A program made the position numbers and the translations under genes. Source: Hyphococcus sp. (GTDB lineage Bacteria > Pseudomonadota > Alphaproteobacteria > Caulobacterales > Parvularculaceae). From it: DNA of 64,000 nucleotides. Shown piece after piece: positions 53,978-62,481 of the stretch (position 1 is its first letter; every line of letters starts with the position of its first letter). A model generated the notes under the pieces. The model worked only from the letters and a program-made list of their open reading frames with translations. It was not told the origin of the DNA and ran no database searches. The stretch lies in contig JAJFGF010000047.1 of assembly GCA_021776245.1 (NCBI GenBank), positions 62,001-126,000 of the forward strand. The letters run 5' to 3'.

Positions 53978-54475
53978 ATGGCGGAAAATCCGAAAGACGG
54001 ACTCACGCATTTCGACGCAGGCGGGCGCCCGCGCATGGTTGATGTTTCAGCCAAAACACCGACCATGCGCATGGCCCGGGCATCGGGTTTTGTGCGCATG
54101 TCAGATGCCGCCCTTGATCTGGTGCGTGAGCGCGCGAGTAAAAAAGGCGATCCCGCGGCCGCCGCGGAACTTGCCGGCGTCATGGGCGCCAAACGCACTG
54201 CCGATCTCATTCCCCTGTGCCATCCCTTGTCGTTAAGCGCCGTTAATGTTGATGCATCGGTCGATGCGGGAAATGGCGGCGTATCGGTCACCGCAAGCGT
54301 CAAGACGACCGGCCCGACCGGCGTCGAGATGGAAGCCCTGACCGCAGTCACGGTCGCCTGTCTCACGCTTTATGACATGCTCAAGGCCATCGATAAGGAA
54401 ATGACCATCGAAGATATTGCGCTGATGGAAAAAACCGGCGGCGTCTCAGGCAATTACAAACGCAACGATTCATGA
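53978..54475 (+). CDS. moaC: Cyclic pyranopterin monophosphate synthase MoaC
   Basis: Acts with MoaA to make cyclic pyranopterin monophosphate. 165 aa. AGGRPRMVDVSAKTPTMRMA, AGVMGAKRTADLIPLCHPL and KTTGPTGVEMEALTAVTVAC are diagnostic, and the C-terminal KAIDKEMTIEDIALMEKTGG is complete. Starts at the base after the moaB stop and overlaps moeA by ATGA. Confidence 0.95.
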   Translation: MAENPKDGLTHFDAGGRPRMVDVSAKTPTMRMARASGFVRMSDAALDLVRERASKKGDPAAAAELAGVMGAKRTADLIPLCHPLSLSAVNVDASVDAGNGGVSVTASVKTTGPTGVEMEALTAVTVACLTLYDMLKAIDKEMTIEDIALMEKTGGVSGNYKRNDS

Positions 54476-55662
54476 TTTCGGTTGACGAAGCCAGAAAACT
54501 GATCCGCGAGAACCTTTCTCCTCTCGGCGCAGAAATCTGTTCTATCGAAGACGCGGCAGATCGAATATTGGCGAAGCCGACTGCCGCACTACTCAACCAG
54601 CCGCCTTTCGCCGCTTCCGCCATGGACGGCTATGCGGTGCGTTTTGAAGATGCGCGCGGGACAGGCGCCAAACTCAACGTCACCGGCCTGTCCGCTGCTG
54701 GCGAACGCTTCGACGGCGCCGTTGGCGCCGGCTGCGCGGTTCGGATTTATACGGGCGCGCCGGTTCCAGACGGCGCCGATCATGTCATCATTCAGGAACA
54801 TGTGAAGCGCGACGGCGATGTCATCACGATCACAGAAGCGCAAAAAGCACCGCGACACATCCGCCCTGCCGGCATAGATTTTAAAGAGGGTGAGGCCTTG
54901 CTCACGCCGGGGACCCGCCTCAACGGACCGGCGCTTGCACTTGCCGCCGCCGCTAATCACGCCCGCGTTTCGGTGCGGCGGCGCCCGCGCATCGCCCTGA
55001 TCGCCAATGGCGATGAATTGACCGCGCCCGGCGGCGCGCCGGCGCCGGACCAGATCATCAGTTCCATTCCCTATGGACTGACGCCGATGATCGCGCACTG
55101 GGGCGGCGTCGCCGATTTTTTGGGGATCGCCCCGGACGATCCCGCTGCGATCAGCGAAATCGCGCAGCGTGGTTTTGACTATGATCTGATCGTCCCCATT
55201 GGCGGCGCCTCGGTTGGCGACAAGGATTATATGCGCGGCGTCTTTCAAGATTTTGGCTTTTCATCGATCTTTGAAAAGGTTTCGGTCAAGCCGGGCAAGC
55301 CCGCCTGGTTCGGCGCGGTCAAGGACACACATATCATTGGCCTGCCCGGTAACCCGGCGTCAGCGATGGTCACCGCCATGTTATTCGTCAGGCCGGCGAT
55401 TGAAGCATTGCTTGGCGTTAGAGACAGCGCCAACGTATTTACCGCGCCGCTGGCAACGCCGCTTGCCGCCAACGGCCCGCGCGAAAGCTATCTGCGCGCG
55501 CGCCTGTTGCACGATCATCAGCATCGCCAAAGCGTCGCGCCCCATGGCAATCAGGACAGTTCACTGATGTCGGTCTTTGCAAAATCCGATGTGCTGGTGC
55601 GGCGCCTGGCAAATGCACAAGCAGCGCGCGAAGGCGACAGGGTTGAGTGCCTTGTGATTTGA
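54472..55662 (+). CDS. moeA: Molybdopterin molybdotransferase MoeA
   Basis: Inserts molybdate into adenylylated molybdopterin. 396 aa with FAASAMDGYAVRF, GAPVPDGADHVIIQEHVK, IALIANGDEL, GGASVGDKDYM, KPGKPAWFG and GLPGNPASAMVT in order. Overlaps moaC, closing the moa operon. A degraded partial copy lies at 62342-62481, 7 kb away. Confidence 0.95.
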   Translation: MISVDEARKLIRENLSPLGAEICSIEDAADRILAKPTAALLNQPPFAASAMDGYAVRFEDARGTGAKLNVTGLSAAGERFDGAVGAGCAVRIYTGAPVPDGADHVIIQEHVKRDGDVITITEAQKAPRHIRPAGIDFKEGEALLTPGTRLNGPALALAAAANHARVSVRRRPRIALIANGDELTAPGGAPAPDQIISSIPYGLTPMIAHWGGVADFLGIAPDDPAAISEIAQRGFDYDLIVPIGGASVGDKDYMRGVFQDFGFSSIFEKVSVKPGKPAWFGAVKDTHIIGLPGNPASAMVTAMLFVRPAIEALLGVRDSANVFTAPLATPLAANGPRESYLRARLLHDHQHRQSVAPHGNQDSSLMSVFAKSDVLVRRLANAQAAREGDRVECLVI

Positions 55663-55766: not shown

Positions 55767-55985
55767 TTACATAAACCGCCGCAAGAAGGGCGTGCGATCC
55801 GCCGCCTCTCGATCATCTGCCGGCGTCGTCTCGTCGCCAAAAATCTCCACAGTCCTTACACAATAGGATCGCCTGCCAGTCAGACTCTCGGCGAGGCTGG
55901 ACGCCACAAAATCGTAAGCCGCTTTCTTTTCATAAAACGCGCATAGCGGCCTTTCATTTTCAAGCACCAAATAAATATTCGTCAT
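55767..55985 (-). CDS. Small uncharacterised protein after the SET gene
   Basis: A 72-aa protein (MTNIYLVLENERPLCAFYEK...) without signal peptide or known domain; AGGGG lies upstream of its ATG. It begins 10 bases after the SET-domain gene stop on the same strand and so may be the last gene of the kamA-type operon. It converges with moeA. Confidence 0.5.
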   Translation of the reverse strand: MTNIYLVLENERPLCAFYEKKAAYDFVASSLAESLTGRRSYCVRTVEIFGDETTPADDREAADRTPFLRRFM

Positions 55986-55994
55986 ATGCGACCC

Positions 55995-56435
55995 CTACTT
56001 CCTCGCGGAGAACCACAAGGGGCATTTGTAACTATACGTAATTTCTTCGCCGGAATTGATGGCGCGCCGCGCAGTAAGATCCGCGATCCATCCAAGATCC
56101 TCGCTTTGGAAAAATGTTACATCCGCATTGGCAATGTCCGCGTGATTACAAATACTCATAAGGCCAAACGCCATAAGGCCCGCTTTTGGAACCTGCGGAT
56201 GTGCAAAGTAGAAATCCCCGATCGGCCGCATCCTGTCGAGGTCCTCGGACTGGCTGGCGCCGATATCGACACAAACGGCGCGGTCGATCAGTTCGCGCTC
56301 TGCGATCGGTGCGATCGCAAACAGGCCTCTGCCGCCCAATGCGCTGGCGCGCGGCGCAGCGAGACTGGGCCGGCGGCGCCAAAAATCGCTGGTATCCGGC
56401 CCTGACGGAACCGCCATCATAGCGTCATGGTTCAT
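55995..56435 (-). CDS. SET-domain protein
   Basis: A 146-aa single SET domain: GGRGLFAIAPIAERELIDRA at the start, SICNHADIANADVTFF carrying the N-H motif, and INSGEEITYSYKCPLW with the GEE.TY.Y motif that holds the catalytic tyrosine. SET proteins are lysine methyltransferases. ATG 56435 follows GGAGGG and overlaps the 3' end of the GNAT/deacetylase gene by 11 bases; an open frame extending to 56843 lies inside that gene. No pre- or post-SET zinc cluster. In this operon a lysine-type substrate would be consistent, but that is inference. Confidence 0.82.
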   Translation of the reverse strand: MNHDAMMAVPSGPDTSDFWRRRPSLAAPRASALGGRGLFAIAPIAERELIDRAVCVDIGASQSEDLDRMRPIGDFYFAHPQVPKAGLMAFGLMSICNHADIANADVTFFQSEDLGWIADLTARRAINSGEEITYSYKCPLWFSARK

Positions 56436-58695
56436 TGGGAATTTCCCTCCTGAAGATAATTTTGTTATCGCCGGGACGGTAAAAATCAGATATTTCGGCG
56501 ACCTGTTCAAAACCGGAAGTTTCATAAAAAGCCCGGGCGTTTGCGTAAGGCTCTGTTGAAGAAGTCTCGGCAATGAGATGCCCGCCGCCAAGTTTCCCGA
56601 TCGCTGTGTACACCTTTTGAGCCAGGCCACGGCCGAGCCCAACTCTCCGCCAGGCGGGATCGACCACCAGCCAGTAAAGGTCAAACATGTTCTCGGTACC
56701 CGGTGTTTTCCCGTAGCAGGCATATCCTGAAACGCTGTTTCTGTCATAAGCGAACACAAACCGGTAACCGGAGCCGCGTCCCTGGGCGATGCGTTCGGCG
56801 GCCAGTTCCTCCGCAATGGTGATTTCTTCCGATGAAAAAACATTGGCTGCGATCACCAGACGGCGGATCTCGGCAAGATCACCCGGCCTCACCGCCTCTC
56901 GCCAGTTCAGCGCAGCGGCGGAAGGCTCCGTTCGTTTGCGGCGTTTGGGAACAGGCGCCTCATCCAGCGGCGACAAGCCTTGTGAAAAGCCTTCGAAAAA
57001 CCTGCGCGCATTGGCGCCCAGACTGCGTACGCGATAACCGCCTTCCTGGACGAAAACCGTTTGCAGGTCGGCGCTCGCGATCAGCTCGCCCATTTTGAAA
57101 AAATCAGCGGCGCGATATGACCATGATCCGGTCGGATCGCCCTTGGCCGCATCCAGCCCGAAAGCAACAACCAGATAGGCGGGGTTAAATTCTGCGATGC
57201 GGCTTAGCGCGCCCTTCAGGGCCTCGCGGTGTTCTTCCGGCTCGATCGCTTCATCCATCGGGATATTGAGGTTGAATCCCGCACCGGGTCCGCGGCCGGT
57301 TTCATCTTTGAAGCCCGAGAAATAGGGATAGGCAAAGCTCGGGTCGCCGTGAACCGATATCGTCAGGACATCGCCGCGCTGATAAAAAATGTCCTGGGTG
57401 CCGTTGCCATGATGATAATCCACATCAAGAACCGCAACGCGTCCGTAGTTTGACAGAAAATGGGCGGCGACCGCAGCGTTATTGAAGTAGCAAAATCCGC
57501 CAAACGCTTTCGCTTCGGCGTGGTGGCCCGGCGGACGCACCAGTGCGTAAGCGGCGCGGGCGCCGTTCAAAACTGCATTCGCTGCGGTCAACGCACAATC
57601 AACGGCGCCGCGGGCCGCCGGATAAGCGTTCCTGTTAATTGGCGTGAAGGTGTCGATGCACCAATAGCCAGCGAGCACCGAGCGATCCTTCGGCATTCGC
57701 TGTGCATTCCTGAGCGGAAACACATAAGGATAAACGGATTTGCCGTCAGGCGCGTCAGCGCAGGCTCGTTCGATATAGTCTACAAGGCGCGGGTCATGTA
57801 CCGCCTTGATGTAATGGTCGCCAAAATGCCTGGCCTGAACTGACTCAAACAACTCGGTCTTCTCCAGTTCCGCGAGGATTGAGCTAATCCGCACCGGCGC
57901 TTCAACATAGCCGCGCTCGCGAATATGGTGAATGTCGTGCTTGTCGTTGACGACCAGCGGAAATTTCTTCACCGCGACATCGGATGTTTTTTGGCGCGCT
58001 TTGGCGGAATATCGCGGCGGGCGCAATCCCAGAGTTTTGTTGTCAACAGATGTGACAACGCGTTCGATATAGCCCGGCGAGCAAATATGAGCATATTTAC
58101 GCTCGAGGATCGCGCGGATAATCTTTTTGAGCTTTGCCGCCTTGGGCAGGGAGAATTCCCCTAATCCGTCAAACATTATATAAAGACTATCCGGCGTTTC
58201 CGGATCCACGGGCGTTTCATATTCCGTACCGGTAATCGGATAGGCCGCAAAACGTTCGTAAAATTTAAGGCGCGCGATATTCTGTGTTCGAATGGCGGGA
58301 TCAGGACTAAGCGCAGCATCGTCCGGCAAACATTCAAAATAGAGGCCCTCAAGTTTTTTCGCACGGGCCTTTTCACGGACCTGTTCGTAAAGCGCTGCGC
58401 CAACGCCGCTTCCGCCGCCAAGTTTGCTCACCGAAATCAATTCCAAAAAGCCAAAGCGCATCGCCGGGTCTACAAGCAACATCGCAAAGCCCCGGATGCG
58501 GCCGCGACCATCTTCCGCCACCATCACTTTTGTCACAAATTGATGGGCCACAGGGTCGCTGATCTGTTCGGGTATTTTTTCAATATCCCGCGCCGGCATA
58601 TCCGGAAACTGATCGCGAATGATCTCCTGTATCTCCGAAATCGCTCGAGCGTTCGCCGGCGCGACCGCGTCGGTCAGGGTGCGTATACGAAACAT
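56425..58695 (-). CDS. GNAT acetyltransferase - deacetylase - GNAT triple fusion
   Basis: A 756-aa protein combining opposing activities. Residues 1-175 are a GNAT domain (LISVSKLGGGSGVGAALYEQ acetyl-CoA loop). Residues about 245-575 are a class II histone-deacetylase/acetylpolyamine amidohydrolase domain with RPPGHHAEA (His391/392), DVDYHHGNGTQD (Asp426, His428), GLDAAKGDPTG (Asp520) and EGGY (Tyr554), so zinc ligands and catalytic tyrosine are intact; HGDPSFAYPYFSGF is typical of acetylpolyamine amidohydrolases. A basic linker (VPKRRKRTE) leads to a second GNAT domain (about 595-750, VVDPAWRRVGLGRG). It starts immediately after the ATP-grasp stop. A switchable acetylation of lysine- or polyamine-like amines is implied. 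Confidence 0.9.
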   Translation of the reverse strand: MFRIRTLTDAVAPANARAISEIQEIIRDQFPDMPARDIEKIPEQISDPVAHQFVTKVMVAEDGRGRIRGFAMLLVDPAMRFGFLELISVSKLGGGSGVGAALYEQVREKARAKKLEGLYFECLPDDAALSPDPAIRTQNIARLKFYERFAAYPITGTEYETPVDPETPDSLYIMFDGLGEFSLPKAAKLKKIIRAILERKYAHICSPGYIERVVTSVDNKTLGLRPPRYSAKARQKTSDVAVKKFPLVVNDKHDIHHIRERGYVEAPVRISSILAELEKTELFESVQARHFGDHYIKAVHDPRLVDYIERACADAPDGKSVYPYVFPLRNAQRMPKDRSVLAGYWCIDTFTPINRNAYPAARGAVDCALTAANAVLNGARAAYALVRPPGHHAEAKAFGGFCYFNNAAVAAHFLSNYGRVAVLDVDYHHGNGTQDIFYQRGDVLTISVHGDPSFAYPYFSGFKDETGRGPGAGFNLNIPMDEAIEPEEHREALKGALSRIAEFNPAYLVVAFGLDAAKGDPTGSWSYRAADFFKMGELIASADLQTVFVQEGGYRVRSLGANARRFFEGFSQGLSPLDEAPVPKRRKRTEPSAAALNWREAVRPGDLAEIRRLVIAANVFSSEEITIAEELAAERIAQGRGSGYRFVFAYDRNSVSGYACYGKTPGTENMFDLYWLVVDPAWRRVGLGRGLAQKVYTAIGKLGGGHLIAETSSTEPYANARAFYETSGFEQVAEISDFYRPGDNKIIFRREIPNEP

Positions 58696-59661
58696 TTATC
58701 GTCTCCGCGAACGCCGGGCGGCATTGACGATGGCTTCGACGCCGTCTTCGTATTCGAATCCGGCTTCTTTCAACGCCGCTGCGAAGCCCGCGTCAGGCGC
58801 AAGGCAGGGATTTGCATTGATGTCAATAATGTAACTCTTGCCCATGGAATCGACTCGAAAGTCGATGCGGCCATATCCGCTGAGCTCCGCCGCCGCCCAA
58901 CATTTTAATGTCAGGCTCTTCAACCGCTCCGCCAATTCAGGATCGTGTTCCTCAACTCCGAAGCGCCGCTGTGTGACGCTGTATTCCTGGCTCGCCGTGT
59001 CCCATTTTGCGGCGTAGTCAACAATCGGCAACATGTCGTCGGGCCGGCCGTCAAAACGCATCTCCGCAATTGGCAAAACATGCGGTCCATCATCAAGTTG
59101 CAGGACGGACACGTTAAATTCTCTGCCATGAACATATTTCTCGGCAAAAAATCGTCCGCCGAAGTGCTTTTCGCGAAACATGATTTCGCGGCTCGCGGAC
59201 CTGCCATCAACCACAGAGTTTTGGTCTATGCCGAACGAAGCATGTTCATAGACAGACTTGATAATGACTTTCTTTCCGGCCGGCACAGCCCGAGTCCACC
59301 ATTCAGGAGCCGGCAGGTTCGCCGCCTGCAGGAGGATTTTTGTCAGGATTTTTGAGGTGCTTTGATAATACGCTGTTTCGCCCGCTCCCGTATGAGCGAG
59401 ATTGCAGTGTTCCAGCATGGCGCAAGCCAGATAGCCAAGACGGCCATTGCCGCGAAGCCCCTCAACGAGATTGAAGACAACGAGGGGTTGCCGGGCGGCA
59501 AGCGCCTCGAAAACAGTTAAATCCAAATCAATCGGCGTAATATCGGTTTGATAGCCACGGGCTTGTAACGCCGCCGCAATGGTTTCGGCGTTGCGGAACG
59601 TATCGGCTTCGTCGGGCCGGTCGGCGGCAACCCCGTGGATAATTGGGACCAGGTTTGACAT
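58696..59661 (-). CDS. ATP-grasp ligase (D-Ala-D-Ala ligase-like), second copy
   Basis: A 321-aa ATP-grasp enzyme: N-terminal Rossmann-like domain (VVFNLVEGLRGNGRLGYLAC), lid (KKVIIKSVYEHASFGIDQNS), and metal/ATP residues near RIDFRVDSMGKSYIIDINAN and PCLAPDAG. ATG 59661 lies 7 bases downstream of the stop of the first ATP-grasp gene; a start at 59736 inside that gene is rejected. It differs clearly from its neighbour, so the two probably ligate different acceptors or act in sequence. Its stop abuts the acetyltransferase/deacetylase start. Confidence 0.87.
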   Translation of the reverse strand: MSNLVPIIHGVAADRPDEADTFRNAETIAAALQARGYQTDITPIDLDLTVFEALAARQPLVVFNLVEGLRGNGRLGYLACAMLEHCNLAHTGAGETAYYQSTSKILTKILLQAANLPAPEWWTRAVPAGKKVIIKSVYEHASFGIDQNSVVDGRSASREIMFREKHFGGRFFAEKYVHGREFNVSVLQLDDGPHVLPIAEMRFDGRPDDMLPIVDYAAKWDTASQEYSVTQRRFGVEEHDPELAERLKSLTLKCWAAAELSGYGRIDFRVDSMGKSYIIDINANPCLAPDAGFAAALKEAGFEYEDGVEAIVNAARRSRRR

Positions 59662-59668
59662 TACATGC

Positions 59669-60667
59669 TCACGCCGCCAGCTTTTGTGGCGCCTTGATGT
59701 TGTAGCGTGCGCATGCGGATCGGATGATCTCGCCAATTAGCCACTGATAGCTGCGGCCCGCTTTCCCTGTTAATATCGGCAGGTCGGAATGGGTTGGATG
59801 CAATCCCGCGATCGGATTAACTTCAAGGAACTGCGGTGAGCCGCACGCATCCGATTTTAAATCAACGCGGCCGGCATCGCGGCAGCCGAGCGCCCTGTAT
59901 GCAGCAAGCGCACGCGTCGCGGCCAATCTGGCTTCTTTGTCGTCGGCGAGATCAAGCACGACAAAGCGCTCCCAGTTCTCCTTGATTTCTAACGAATAAA
60001 CCCCGCCGTCAGCATCCGGGCGCACAGCGATTTCCATGACCGCGATGATTTCCGCTGCATGACCGGTCCCGATGACGCCGACCGTGAATTCGCGGCCGGG
60101 CAGAAAACTCTCGACGATCAGCGGCTGACGAAATGCATCGTACAGACGGGCCGCCTCCAATCGAAGGAGGTCCGGCCCGTGAACGAGGGATTTCCCCGTG
60201 CATCCCTTGCCGGTCCCTTCAGCGACGGGTTTGATAAAGGCAGGATAGTCGATGTCGGGGAGCGGCGAACTGGCGTTTTCGATCACGACAAACGGCGCGG
60301 TTGGAATTCCATGATCTCTGATGATGCGTTTTGCGATCTCCTTATCAAGCGTTGCGGCCATGGTGAGCGGATCAGAAAAAGCATAAGGCTGTTTAAACAT
60401 CTCGCAGAGCGCCGGAACTTGCGCCTCTCGCGATCGCCCGCTCAATCCTTCCGCAATCGAAAACACCAAATCGAACCGGTCGCCGGCGACAAGGCGGCGA
60501 GCCAGGTCGGCGCCGCGGCCAACGCGACGCACGTCCCATCCCAGGGACTGAAATACATCACTTAACGCCTCGATAGTTGCAAGCGAATCGAATTCGGCAG
60601 TTTCCTCTTCGGAGTAACCGAGCGCGCGATAGCTGTCACGGAGATCGAAAACAAAACCGAGTTTCAC
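59669..60667 (-). CDS. ATP-grasp ligase (D-Ala-D-Ala ligase-like), first copy
   Basis: A 332-aa ATP-grasp enzyme starting MKLGFVFDLRDSYRALGYSE. Visible elements: VFSIAEGLSGRSREAQVPAL (N-domain loop), YPAFIKPVAEGTGKGC (ATP lysine and glycine loop), LIVESFLPGREFTVGVI, and RVDLKSDACGSPQFLEVNPI, AGLHPTHSDLP with metal-binding acidic residues. This is the D-Ala-D-Ala ligase fold, but location beside an aminomutase rather than mur genes argues for another carboxylate-amine ligation. ATGA overlap with the aminomutase gene. Confidence 0.88.
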   Translation of the reverse strand: MKLGFVFDLRDSYRALGYSEEETAEFDSLATIEALSDVFQSLGWDVRRVGRGADLARRLVAGDRFDLVFSIAEGLSGRSREAQVPALCEMFKQPYAFSDPLTMAATLDKEIAKRIIRDHGIPTAPFVVIENASSPLPDIDYPAFIKPVAEGTGKGCTGKSLVHGPDLLRLEAARLYDAFRQPLIVESFLPGREFTVGVIGTGHAAEIIAVMEIAVRPDADGGVYSLEIKENWERFVVLDLADDKEARLAATRALAAYRALGCRDAGRVDLKSDACGSPQFLEVNPIAGLHPTHSDLPILTGKAGRSYQWLIGEIIRSACARYNIKAPQKLAA

Positions 60668-61974
60668 GATAATTTTCCATCAACGGTTTGGAAAGCGCCG
60701 ACTGTTCCGCCGGCGTCAGAATAGCGATACTCGCCGCCTTCATAGTTGCGCAGGATAAGATCATCCCCATCCCGGCCCACGATATAGTCTGGCGACAGCG
60801 GAATTTTTCCGCCGCCGCCGGGCGCATCGATGACAAAAGTCGGCGACGCATAACCCGTTGTATGCCCGCGCAAGCCCTCGATGATTTCGAGGCCGCTGGC
60901 GACCGGGGTCCGGAAGTGCGAAGAACCGGTAATCGGGTCACATTGATAAAGATAGTAGGGTTTAACCCGTCGTTTTAAGAGACCGTGCATCAACGGTTTT
61001 ATGATCGCAATGTCGTCATTGACGCCCTTCAGGAGTACTGTCTGGCTGCCTAACGGAACACCGGCATCGGCGAGCCGCGCGGTTGATTCCGTAACCTCAG
61101 GCGTCAGTTCGTCCGGATGCGTAAAGTGAATGCTCATCCACAATGGGTGATGCTTTTTCAGGATGGCCGTCAGCGATGGCGTAATCCGCATGGGAAGCAC
61201 AACGGGAACTTTCGTTCCGATGCGAATAAACTCCACATGCGATATCGCACGCAAACGGCCTAACAGATAATCAAGCCGCTCATCGGAAAGTGTCAACGGA
61301 TCACCGCCCGAAATCAGGACGTCACGAATTTCCGCGTGGGCGGCGATATATTCAAGCGCCCGTTCCCATTGCGACCTGGAGAATTCATATTCACCCCCTG
61401 GCTCGCCAACCATGCGCGAGCGGGTGCAATAGCGGCAATATGTCGAACAGAACCCTGTTGCGAGAAACAAGACGCGGTCAGGATAGCGGTGCACAAGTCC
61501 GGGAACGGCCGCGTCATGGTCTTCGCCAAGCGGGTCGTCGGCTTCACCGGGGGTTTTTACGAATTCGTCTCCGACAGGAATATGCGTGCGGCGCAATCCT
61601 TGCGACGGATCATCGAGACTCATCAGACTTGCGTAATACGGCGTGACGCCCATCGGGAGGGCGCCGGACCGCTGCGCAACGGCCTGACGCTCGTCAGCAC
61701 TCAACTCAAATATACGGTCGAGCTCGGCGAGAGACTTGATGCGGTTGCGAAGCTGCCAGCGCCAGTCAAGCCAGTCGGCGTCCGCCGCCTGCGCAAAGAA
61801 CCGGTCCCGGAACGCACGTGAGCGTTCAGAAAACGGAAACCCGGTTGTCTGCTCGCCGCTGACGCTGTTCGTTACAATATGTGGAAATGGCTGAAAATCG
61901 ACGCTGTGTTTTGAGCGACGACTGGGAGGCTTAGCGGCCTCCCTGGCCGCTTGCCTCGAATATTTGAGATGCAC
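60664..61974 (-). CDS. Lysine 2,3-aminomutase-like radical SAM enzyme
   Basis: A 436-aa KamA-family protein. Radical SAM cysteines 176, 180 and 183 (GFCSTYCRYC), SGGDPLTLSD, KVPVVLPMRIT, and all substrate/PLP residues known for clostridial lysine 2,3-aminomutase are kept: Asp346 in YQCDPITGSSHFRTP, Asp383 and PLP-lysine 390 in VIDAPGGGGK. This fits a true L-lysine to L-beta-lysine mutase rather than an EpmB, which also lacks this operon context. The start at 61974 is GTG and may be too long by 20-25 residues. It begins the operon with two ATP-grasp ligases and the acetyl switch protein. Confidence 0.88.
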   Translation of the reverse strand: MHLKYSRQAAREAAKPPSRRSKHSVDFQPFPHIVTNSVSGEQTTGFPFSERSRAFRDRFFAQAADADWLDWRWQLRNRIKSLAELDRIFELSADERQAVAQRSGALPMGVTPYYASLMSLDDPSQGLRRTHIPVGDEFVKTPGEADDPLGEDHDAAVPGLVHRYPDRVLFLATGFCSTYCRYCTRSRMVGEPGGEYEFSRSQWERALEYIAAHAEIRDVLISGGDPLTLSDERLDYLLGRLRAISHVEFIRIGTKVPVVLPMRITPSLTAILKKHHPLWMSIHFTHPDELTPEVTESTARLADAGVPLGSQTVLLKGVNDDIAIIKPLMHGLLKRRVKPYYLYQCDPITGSSHFRTPVASGLEIIEGLRGHTTGYASPTFVIDAPGGGGKIPLSPDYIVGRDGDDLILRNYEGGEYRYSDAGGTVGAFQTVDGKLS

Positions 61975-62341: not shown

Positions 62342-62481
62342 CAACCGCCCTTTGCCGCGTCCGCCATGGACGGCAATGGCAGTTCACTGATGTCGGTCTT
62401 TGCGAGGTCCGATGTGCTGGTGCGGCGCCGTGCACCTGCACAAGCGGCTCGCGAAAAAGGGTTGAGTGTCTGGTGATTTGA
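62342..62481 (+). pseudogene. moeA remnant with internal deletion
   Basis: Bases 62342-62373 encode QPPFAASAMDG, the N-terminal motif of moeA (54598-54632); immediately afterwards GNGSSLMSVFARSDVLVRRR and APAQAARE match the moeA C-terminus (55547-55662). About 900 bases of the middle are missing, joined at a shared GGC, and the last codons are out of frame relative to moeA (the moeA-like stop is at 62479, the actual one at 62474). DNA identity is high, so the copy is fairly recent. The rest of the gap 61975-62341 shows no gene. Confidence 0.75.

What the first reader, a model, noticed from the sequence alone, without database searches (positions are those of the whole stretch)
55767..61974. 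Aminomutase - two ATP-grasp ligases - acetylase/deacetylase fusion - SET operon
Six minus-strand genes are packed with overlaps or near-zero gaps: a KamA-type lysine 2,3-aminomutase with intact lysine-specific aspartates and PLP lysine, two different D-Ala-D-Ala-ligase-like enzymes, a GNAT-deacetylase-GNAT protein, a SET-domain protein and a small protein. Known chemistry suggests beta-lysine formation, carboxylate-amine ligation and reversible N-acetylation. A beta-lysine-containing dipeptide, an acetylated osmolyte (compare N-epsilon-acetyl-beta-lysine) or a lysine modification of protein or peptide are possible products. I know of no described pathway with this full set.
Basis: partly seen in the sequence, partly recalled or inferred. 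Interest (0 to 1): 0.88.

Follow-up and report, generated by a model that had tools for sequence, protein, structure and literature searches.

The report
Widespread beta-lysine peptide-making gene cluster
A compact set of genes that appears to turn lysine into beta-lysine, join it to other building blocks and acetylate the result sits together in bacteria from about ten phyla, and I found no description of it, so it probably makes a small cell metabolite that nobody has yet identified.

Summary
The operon is real at the stated coordinates. KamA, two divergent D-Ala-D-Ala-ligase-like ATP-grasp enzymes (here ATPg1, ATPg2), a GNAT-deacetylase-GNAT fusion and a SET protein follow each other with overlaps or gaps of at most 7 bases. 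The small last ORF matched nothing.

Of 80 named loci fetched by similarity to ATPg1, 75 hold KamA (one doubtful), 70 ATPg2 and 55 the second GNAT; of 37 with nearly full 7-kb flanks, 36, 34 and 32. KamA-ATPg1-ATPg2 occurs in 10 phyla by record title. GNAT1-deacetylase (12 of 37) and SET (3 of 37, one broken) are add-ons. Gene fusions link the steps.

KamA keeps lysine-type residues in 92 of 92. Both ligases keep the ATP/Mg residues but not the complete Ddl substrate triad; a normal Ddl lies elsewhere.

Best explanation: an NRPS-independent pathway for an N-acetylated beta-lysyl peptide. A compatible-solute role is plausible but unproven: no ectoine association, no Na+ or c-di-AMP riboswitch found, mixed habitats. 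No product is shown.

The parts
60664..61974 (-). KamA-type radical-SAM/PLP aminomutase, first gene; predicted lysine 2,3-aminomutase
   Evidence: Pfam LAM_C and Radical_SAM; best NCBIfam AblA 470.6 bits, under its 525.4 cut-off; only PDB match 2a5h, 448 bits; key residues 92 of 92, window included; the only KamA match in its genome
59669..60667 (-). ATPg1: D-Ala-D-Ala-ligase-like ATP-grasp amino-acid ligase
   Evidence: Pfam Dala_Dala_lig_C; Ddl model 124.5 bits, under its cut-off of 243; AF2 model pLDDT 95.3, the 50 PDB rows shown are all Ddl-type ligases; ATP/Mg residues invariant, Leu282 of Ddl replaced by Asp295 in 105 of 105
58696..59661 (-). ATPg2: second, different Ddl-like ATP-grasp ligase with an NANPC motif
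   Evidence: Pfam; Ddl model 106 bits, under its cut-off of 243; AF2 model pLDDT 95.5, the 50 PDB rows shown are Ddl-type ligases; residue comparison with E. coli DdlB, 73 sequences
56425..58695 (-). GNAT1-HDAC-GNAT2 fusion protein, 756 aa
   Evidence: Pfam; a GNAT1-HDAC-GNAT2 ORF of 756-767 aa also in 9 relatives
58000..58695 (-). GNAT1 domain (residues 1-232)
   Evidence: Acetyltransf_1 27.2 bits; no convincing PDB relative
56926..57999 (-). HDAC domain, acetylpolyamine-amidohydrolase-like (residues 233-590)
   Evidence: nearest PDB chains are acetylpolyamine amidohydrolases 9gkz, 6phr, 3q9b; tandem His, Zn ligands and Tyr in 24 of 24, window included
56425..56925 (-). GNAT2 domain (residues 591-756), the conserved core acetyltransferase
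   Evidence: 2r7h 140.1 bits over nearly its whole length; in one ORF with ATPg2 in 12 other loci
55995..56435 (-). small SET-domain protein, 146 aa
   Evidence: Pfam SET 31.1 bits; vSET 1n3j and SETD7 weak matches; 54% and 52% identical SET stretches at the same place in L098 and L099
55767..55985 (-). small ORF, 72 aa, doubtful member
   Evidence: open frame only; no family and no tblastn match listed in relatives

Best explanation
An NRPS-independent pathway, probably cytoplasmic, for a small N-acetylated beta-lysine-containing peptide. Step 1: KamA converts L-lysine to beta-lysine (inferred; active-site residues shown). Step 2: ATPg1 activates a carboxylate with ATP and joins it to an amine; its kept acceptor-carboxylate serine and the invariant Asp where Ddl has Leu282 suggest a cationic acceptor such as beta-lysine (inferred). 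Step 3: ATPg2 makes a second amide bond on that product (inferred from gene order, one ATPg1-ATPg2 fusion and frequent loss of the Ddl acceptor serine). Step 4: GNAT2 acetylates the substrate or product of ATPg2 (inferred from the recurring ATPg2-GNAT2 fusion). Optional: GNAT1-HDAC adds and removes an acetyl group, perhaps on a side-chain amine, so that the product can be recycled; the SET protein of some Alphaproteobacteria may methylate an amine. No transporter is a constant partner, so the product probably stays inside the cell; a compatible solute or stress metabolite is its likeliest role, by analogy with N-acetyl-beta-lysine and NAGGN.
For: Conserved neighbourhood: KamA in 75, ATPg2 in 70, GNAT2 in 55 of 80 named loci, and 36, 34, 32 of the 37 with nearly full flanks; KamA+ATPg1+ATPg2 in 68 of 80 and with GNAT2 in 53 of 80. 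In the class sample KamA in 25, ATPg1 in 26, GNAT2 in 20 of 26 neighbourhoods. Fusions: ATPg2-GNAT2 in 12 loci, ATPg1-ATPg2 in L112, GNAT1-HDAC with or without GNAT2. KamA residues 92 of 92; ligase ATP/Mg residues; deacetylase residues 24 of 24. Distances of the four core families correlate, r 0.40-0.75, 0 of 999 permutations as high. KamA sits beside an ATPg1 relative in two virus-collection contigs. The genome's canonical Ddl scores 388.2 bits on the model where the two ligases score 124.5 and 106.
Against: No product, substrate or phenotype is known. KamA is below the AblA cut-off. Ligase substrates are guessed from a few positions; Ser281 remains in 13 of 73 ATPg2, and a conserved Glu one column from E15 in ATPg1 may be the Ddl donor residue after all. 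Distance correlation also follows from shared host history. Ectoine synthase: 1 of 27 cluster genomes, 35 of 358 others, p 0.49, a weak test in both directions. No Na+ or c-di-AMP riboswitch in the window or 21 loci. Titles name fen and groundwater as well as marine sources. Transporter genes do occur in small groups: MFS upstream on the same strand in 3, EamA in 4, cation efflux in 4 of 106 loci. Six of 26 class loci had no GNAT2 match, one of them cut off inside the fusion gene.
Confidence: 0.6

Rival explanations
1. The cluster makes plain N-epsilon-acetyl-beta-lysine (KamA + GNAT2 acting like AblA + AblB), and the two ligases do something peripheral.
For: KamA + GNAT is the N-acetyl-beta-lysine gene pair; PMC3543383 (passages) proposes such a pair in Pelobacter carbinolicus.
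Against: AblB family TIGR03827 has no match in the genome, and neither GNAT domain matches it. ATPg2 accompanies ATPg1 almost as often as KamA does, 34 against 36 of 37. GNAT2 is in one ORF with the ligase in 12 loci.
Confidence: 0.1
2. The enzymes modify a protein: beta-lysine is attached to a protein or peptide as in EF-P, then acetylated; HDAC and SET act on protein lysines.
For: HDAC and SET domains are best known on protein lysines; EpmB/EpmA put beta-lysine on EF-P (recalled; abstracts).
Against: The HDAC is nearest to acetylpolyamine amidohydrolases; the EpmB model scores lowest of the six KamA-family models; no gene that could be a target is widely shared beside the core; Ddl-type ligases act on free amino acids (recalled).
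Confidence: 0.12
3. A secreted antibiotic, toxin or metal-binding metabolite, like other aminomutase + ATP-grasp clusters.
For: A table of PMC8473136 (passage) lists a KamA-like protein, an ATP-grasp ligase and two MFS transporters in the Pbo cluster of Pseudomonas syringae; a Thioflavicoccus plasmid has KamA, an ATP-grasp gene and diaminopropionate genes. Distribution is patchy: no close match in any of 10 sampled congeners. An MFS gene lies upstream on the same strand in 3 of 106 loci.
Against: Transporters are rare and of different kinds; the same short core is spread over many phyla.
Confidence: 0.15
4. Homologues brought together by chance, or an annotation artefact.
For: SET is rare in relatives (3 of 80) and the small ORF was not found.
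Against: KamA-ATPg1-ATPg2 together in 68 of 80 loci of 10 named phyla, with several gene fusions.
Confidence: 0.02

Closest known systems
N-epsilon-acetyl-beta-lysine pathway (AblA/AblB)
   Same: Lysine 2,3-aminomutase followed by an acetyltransferase (PMC3543383, PMC9337991, passages only)
   Different: Here two ATP-grasp ligases stand between them, the GNATs do not match AblB, KamA is under the AblA cut-off, and a deacetylase module is often added
NAGGN dipeptide osmolyte pathway (AsnO/Ngg and an aminopeptidase)
   Same: Acetylation and peptide-bond formation of a non-ribosomal dipeptide by one protein, Ngg; a hydrolase in the operon (PMC8070244, passages only)
   Different: No asparagine synthase in the operon; ligases are Ddl-like; domain order in the fusions is ligase-GNAT (the order in Ngg is recalled as the reverse); a KamA supplies a beta-amino acid; no Ngg model matched two ATPg2-GNAT2 fusions at E 1e-6
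D-alanine-D-alanine ligase
   Same: Fold and ATP/Mg residues
   Different: Scores 124.5 and 106 on a Ddl model with cut-off 243, where the genome's own Ddl scores 388.2; Tyr216 replaced in both; Leu282 replaced in both
EF-P beta-lysylation (EpmB/EpmA)
   Same: A KamA-family enzyme making beta-lysine (recalled)
   Different: EpmB model scores far lower than AblA (250.3 against 470.6 bits); no EpmA-like gene among the operon's family matches
Acetylpolyamine amidohydrolase
   Same: Zn and catalytic residues, nearest solved structures
   Different: Fused between two GNAT domains and inside a biosynthetic operon
Pbo cluster of Pseudomonas syringae (pboF/pboG)
   Same: Neighbouring KamA-like and ATP-grasp ligase genes (PMC8473136, one table passage)
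   Different: One ligase in the passage seen, plus MFS transporters and a dioxygenase; sequences not compared here

Membership tests
Lysine 2,3-aminomutase | CxxxCxxC cluster, two substrate aspartates (293, 330), PLP lysine 337, Arg134 | tested here: met
   All in 92 of 92 cluster KamAs, window included; roles recalled
Lysine 2,3-aminomutase | AblA equivalog score of at least 525.4 bits | tested here: not met
   470.6 bits; still the best of the six KamA-family models
Lysine 2,3-aminomutase | Activity on L-lysine | not testable with these tools
   needs an assay
N-acetyl-beta-lysine pathway | AblB-type acetyltransferase TIGR03827 | tested here: not met
   no match in the own genome at E 0.001, while 5 of 14 control genomes rang; not listed for GNAT1 or GNAT2 at E 1
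D-Ala-D-Ala ligase | ATP and Mg residues K97 K144 E180 E187 K215 R255 D257 E270 N272 | tested here: met
   in all 105 ATPg1 and 73 ATPg2, except Asp for E270 in 5 ATPg2 and in the window's own ATPg2
D-Ala-D-Ala ligase | complete substrate triad E15, S150, Y216 | tested here: not met
   Y216: Glu in 85 of 105 ATPg1, Trp in 73 of 73 ATPg2. S150: Thr in 98 and Ser in 7 ATPg1; Ala in 62 and Gly in 11 ATPg2. E15 uncertain: ATPg1 has a conserved Glu one column on, ATPg2 mostly Asp in the column
D-Ala-D-Ala ligase | acceptor residues S281 and L282 | tested here: not met
   ATPg1 Ser 105 of 105 but Asp for Leu 105 of 105; ATPg2 Ala 53, Ser 13, Gly 6, Cys 1, then Gly 73 of 73
D-Ala-D-Ala ligase | curated model score (NF002378, cut-off 243) | tested here: not met
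   124.5 and 106 bits; canonical Ddl of the same genome 388.2
NAGGN pathway | Ngg acetyltransferase-ligase and AsnO | tested here: not met
   no Ngg model listed for window proteins (for ATPg1 25 of 31 hits were shown) or for two ATPg2-GNAT2 fusions; no asparagine synthase in the operon
Zn-dependent deacetylase (HDAC/APAH) | tandem His, Asp-His-Asp zinc site, Tyr | tested here: met
   24 of 24, window included; roles recalled
SET methyltransferase | NH motif and C-terminal tyrosine motif | tested here: met
   CNHAD and GEEITYSY in the window protein; motif roles recalled
Compatible-solute pathway | salt-induced expression and accumulated product | not testable with these tools
   indirect tests gave no support:

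The most novel reading that the evidence does not exclude
An undescribed class of intracellular beta-amino-acid peptide, built without ribosome or NRPS by KamA and two Ddl-derived ligases, shared across ten or more phyla as a movable cassette, with its charge tuned by reversible acetylation and, in some Alphaproteobacteria, by a SET enzyme that methylates a small molecule instead of a protein.
Probability: 0.3. Interest if true: 0.88.

Novelty: new variant of a known kind. Interest (0 to 1): 0.72.

Why it matters
A four-gene core conserved over so many phyla without a known product points to a common but unseen cell metabolite. It would add a beta-amino-acid branch to peptide-type solutes, two new substrate specificities to the Ddl ligase family, and a metabolic role for a deacetylase and perhaps a SET enzyme. 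The gene order makes it directly testable: express the core and look for one product that needs every gene.

Tried and rejected
Rejected: the roughly 30% ATPg2 matches in the order as members; four such neighbourhoods had no KamA match, and in the two whose ORFs I listed (L036, L037) the partner is a metallopeptidase-like gene (that name is by eye). Cell-wall Ddl role: the genome's canonical Ddl lies next to MurB. AblB: absent. A conserved extra gene was sought in the flanks of 106 loci: the largest group, an ABC-type ATPase, reaches 13 loci and never lies within 300 bases; transporters form groups of 3 or 4. The first gene calls were spoiled by shadow ORFs and replaced. Salt signals: none.

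Limits of the counts. L114's KamA is a 28% match over 85 residues; L156's KamA falls in two pieces; L107's SET is in three out-of-frame pieces. L103/L104 are near copies and L083/L123 have contigs of the same length and look like one genome. Phyla are read from record titles; the ten Myxococcota rows are titled Deltaproteobacteria and are doubtful, and bins can hold stray contigs. HDAC presence needs 17 changes on a quick ATPg1 tree of 81 rows, but many loci are cut by contig ends, so I do not lean on that. GNAT1 gave no PDB lead.
Full report
What is there. The finding lies on the minus strand of a 4.14-Mb, 76-contig genome. KamA, ATPg1, ATPg2, a 756-aa GNAT1-HDAC-GNAT2 protein and SET run with overlaps of 4 and 11 bases and gaps of 7 and 0; a 72-aa ORF follows after 9 bases. 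Pfam names all but the last. I shorten ATPg2 to 321 aa and start SET at 56435.

Is it a unit? Within the order, only the window's genome carries a close ATPg2. Of 150 genomes searched 119 match at E 0.001; after the window's own, the best reaches E 5.3e-31 at 32% identity, and the best of 10 congeners 5.4e-11. Four of those weaker neighbourhoods had no KamA. In the class, 27 of 385 genomes, own included, pass E 1e-40. I fetched the other 26 neighbourhoods: ATPg1 in 26, KamA in 25, GNAT2 in 20, HDAC in 5, SET in 3; in L095 and L096 the orientation differs. Among these KamA occurs in 75, ATPg2 in 70, GNAT2 in 55, HDAC in 22 and SET in 3; among the 37 longer than 14.9 kb 36, 34, 32, 12 and 3. KamA+ATPg1+ATPg2 stand together in 68 of 80 and with GNAT2 in 53. 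Titles give 12 phylum names and six rows without one; the three-gene core is in 10 of the 12, not in the single Cloacimonadota and Caldifarciminota loci.

How the parts belong together. ATPg2 and GNAT2 are one ORF in 12 loci and ATPg1 and ATPg2 in one, L112. GNAT1-HDAC occurs as an ORF of 574-599 aa, or with GNAT2 as one of 756-767 aa in nine relatives. In some Bacteroidota, Planctomycetota and Acidobacteriota loci GNAT1-HDAC sits between KamA and ATPg1. Pairwise distances of the core proteins correlate, r 0.40 to 0.75 over 44 to 67 loci, none of 999 permutations as high; shared ancestry of the hosts contributes to this. Of four virus-collection contigs with an ATPg1 relative, two hold KamA directly beside it, and no ATPg2 in the stretch fetched, which ties ATPg1 to the KamA product.

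Chemistry. KamA is 53% identical to the 2a5h stretch; C125, C129, C132, R134, D293, D330 and K337 are kept in 92 of 92. AblA is the best model though under its cut-off. That these aspartates read the lysine amine is recalled. Both ligases are modelled with high confidence and fall among Ddl enzymes, yet they score 124.5 and 106 on a Ddl model with cut-off 243, on which the genome's own Ddl, beside MurB, scores 388.2. The ATP and metal residues are kept throughout, apart from Asp for E270 in five ATPg2 and the window's. Tyr216 of the D-Ala triad is replaced in nearly all; Ser150 is mostly Thr or Ala; E15 cannot be settled by this alignment. ATPg1 keeps Gly276 and Ser281 and has Asp for Leu282 in 105 of 105; ATPg2 has Cys for Gly276 in 68 of 73, Ala at 281 in 53 and Ser in 13 of 73, and Gly at 282 in 73 of 73. 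So they are probably amino-acid ligases with changed substrates. The HDAC part is nearest to acetylpolyamine amidohydrolases and keeps six of six catalytic residues in 24 of 24. GNAT2 matches 2r7h over nearly its whole length; its depositors called it a putative D-alanine N-acetyltransferase.

What it probably does. From order, fusions and residues: lysine to beta-lysine, two ligations, acetylation, with optional reversible acetylation. Each reaction is inferred; only the residues and the conservation are shown. No transporter is a constant partner, though MFS, EamA and cation-efflux genes flank 3, 4 and 4 of 106 loci, so an internal metabolite is likelier than an exported one, not certain. 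A solute role is the best analogy, with N-acetyl-beta-lysine (PMC3543383 and PMC9337991, passages only) and NAGGN (PMC8070244, passages only), but my tests gave it no positive support: ectoine synthase in 1 of 27 cluster genomes against 35 of 358, no riboswitch in the window or in 21 loci, and mixed sources in the titles. PMC9337991 does report a Na+ riboswitch on an ablA gene of Dehalobacter (passages); I saw none on this cluster.

History. The operon lies between an intact moeA and a worn moeA fragment at 62345-62481; its G+C is 0.561 against 0.565 for the window; sampled congeners lack it. Arrival by recombination at a moeA duplicate is my inference.

Literature. Ten searches of the open-access library ran. 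Four gave no paper; of the long lists I saw 15 of 85, 20 of 56 and 8 of 125. None of the papers listed is, by title and abstract start, about this set. Two papers hold both 'aminomutase' and 'ATP-grasp': one seen as a listing only, the other the Pbo cluster paper, one table passage. PMC2922099 (12 of 20 passages) predicts other peptide systems with ATP-grasp and GNAT enzymes; the passages do not show this one. The 2009 amidoligase survey that I wanted is not held.

Verdict.

Noticed in passing
window 62345-62481 (+) and 54472-55662 (+): A degraded fragment of moeA (85% identity over 106 bases of the 3' end, plus 30 bases from the 5' part) lies on the far side of the operon from the intact moeA, as if the operon had landed at a moeA duplicate.
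   Followed up: partly
L179 1811-4026, L180 2977-5098: Two virus-collection contigs carry KamA next to an ATPg1 relative; L179 also has a phage-type DNA polymerase. The three L180 neighbours tested matched no phage family.
   Followed up: partly
L043 4632-10113: Plasmid pTHIMO01 of Thioflavicoccus mobilis holds diaminobutyrate transaminase, SbnA, an ornithine cyclodeaminase-like gene, a Ddl-like ATP-grasp gene and a KamA: perhaps a related diaminopropionate pathway.
   Followed up: partly
L045 4595-7068: A separate GNAT and a histone-deacetylase-family gene lie side by side next to a 3-keto-5-aminohexanoate cleavage gene on a Pararhizobium plasmid.
   Followed up: no
L132 5284-5532 and relatives in 6 loci: A small protein of about 80 aa is encoded upstream of the core on the same strand in six loci, within 300 bases in four; no Pfam match.
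   Followed up: partly
L079 8503-9087, L089 8750-9325: A cysteine-rich protein of about 190 aa overlaps the end of ATPg2 in two class loci that lack a GNAT2 match; no Pfam match for the L079 copy.
   Followed up: partly
L042 7905-8912, L044 7962-8960: Single ATP-grasp genes, 26-34% identical to the two ligases, recur on plasmids of nodule bacteria.
   Followed up: no
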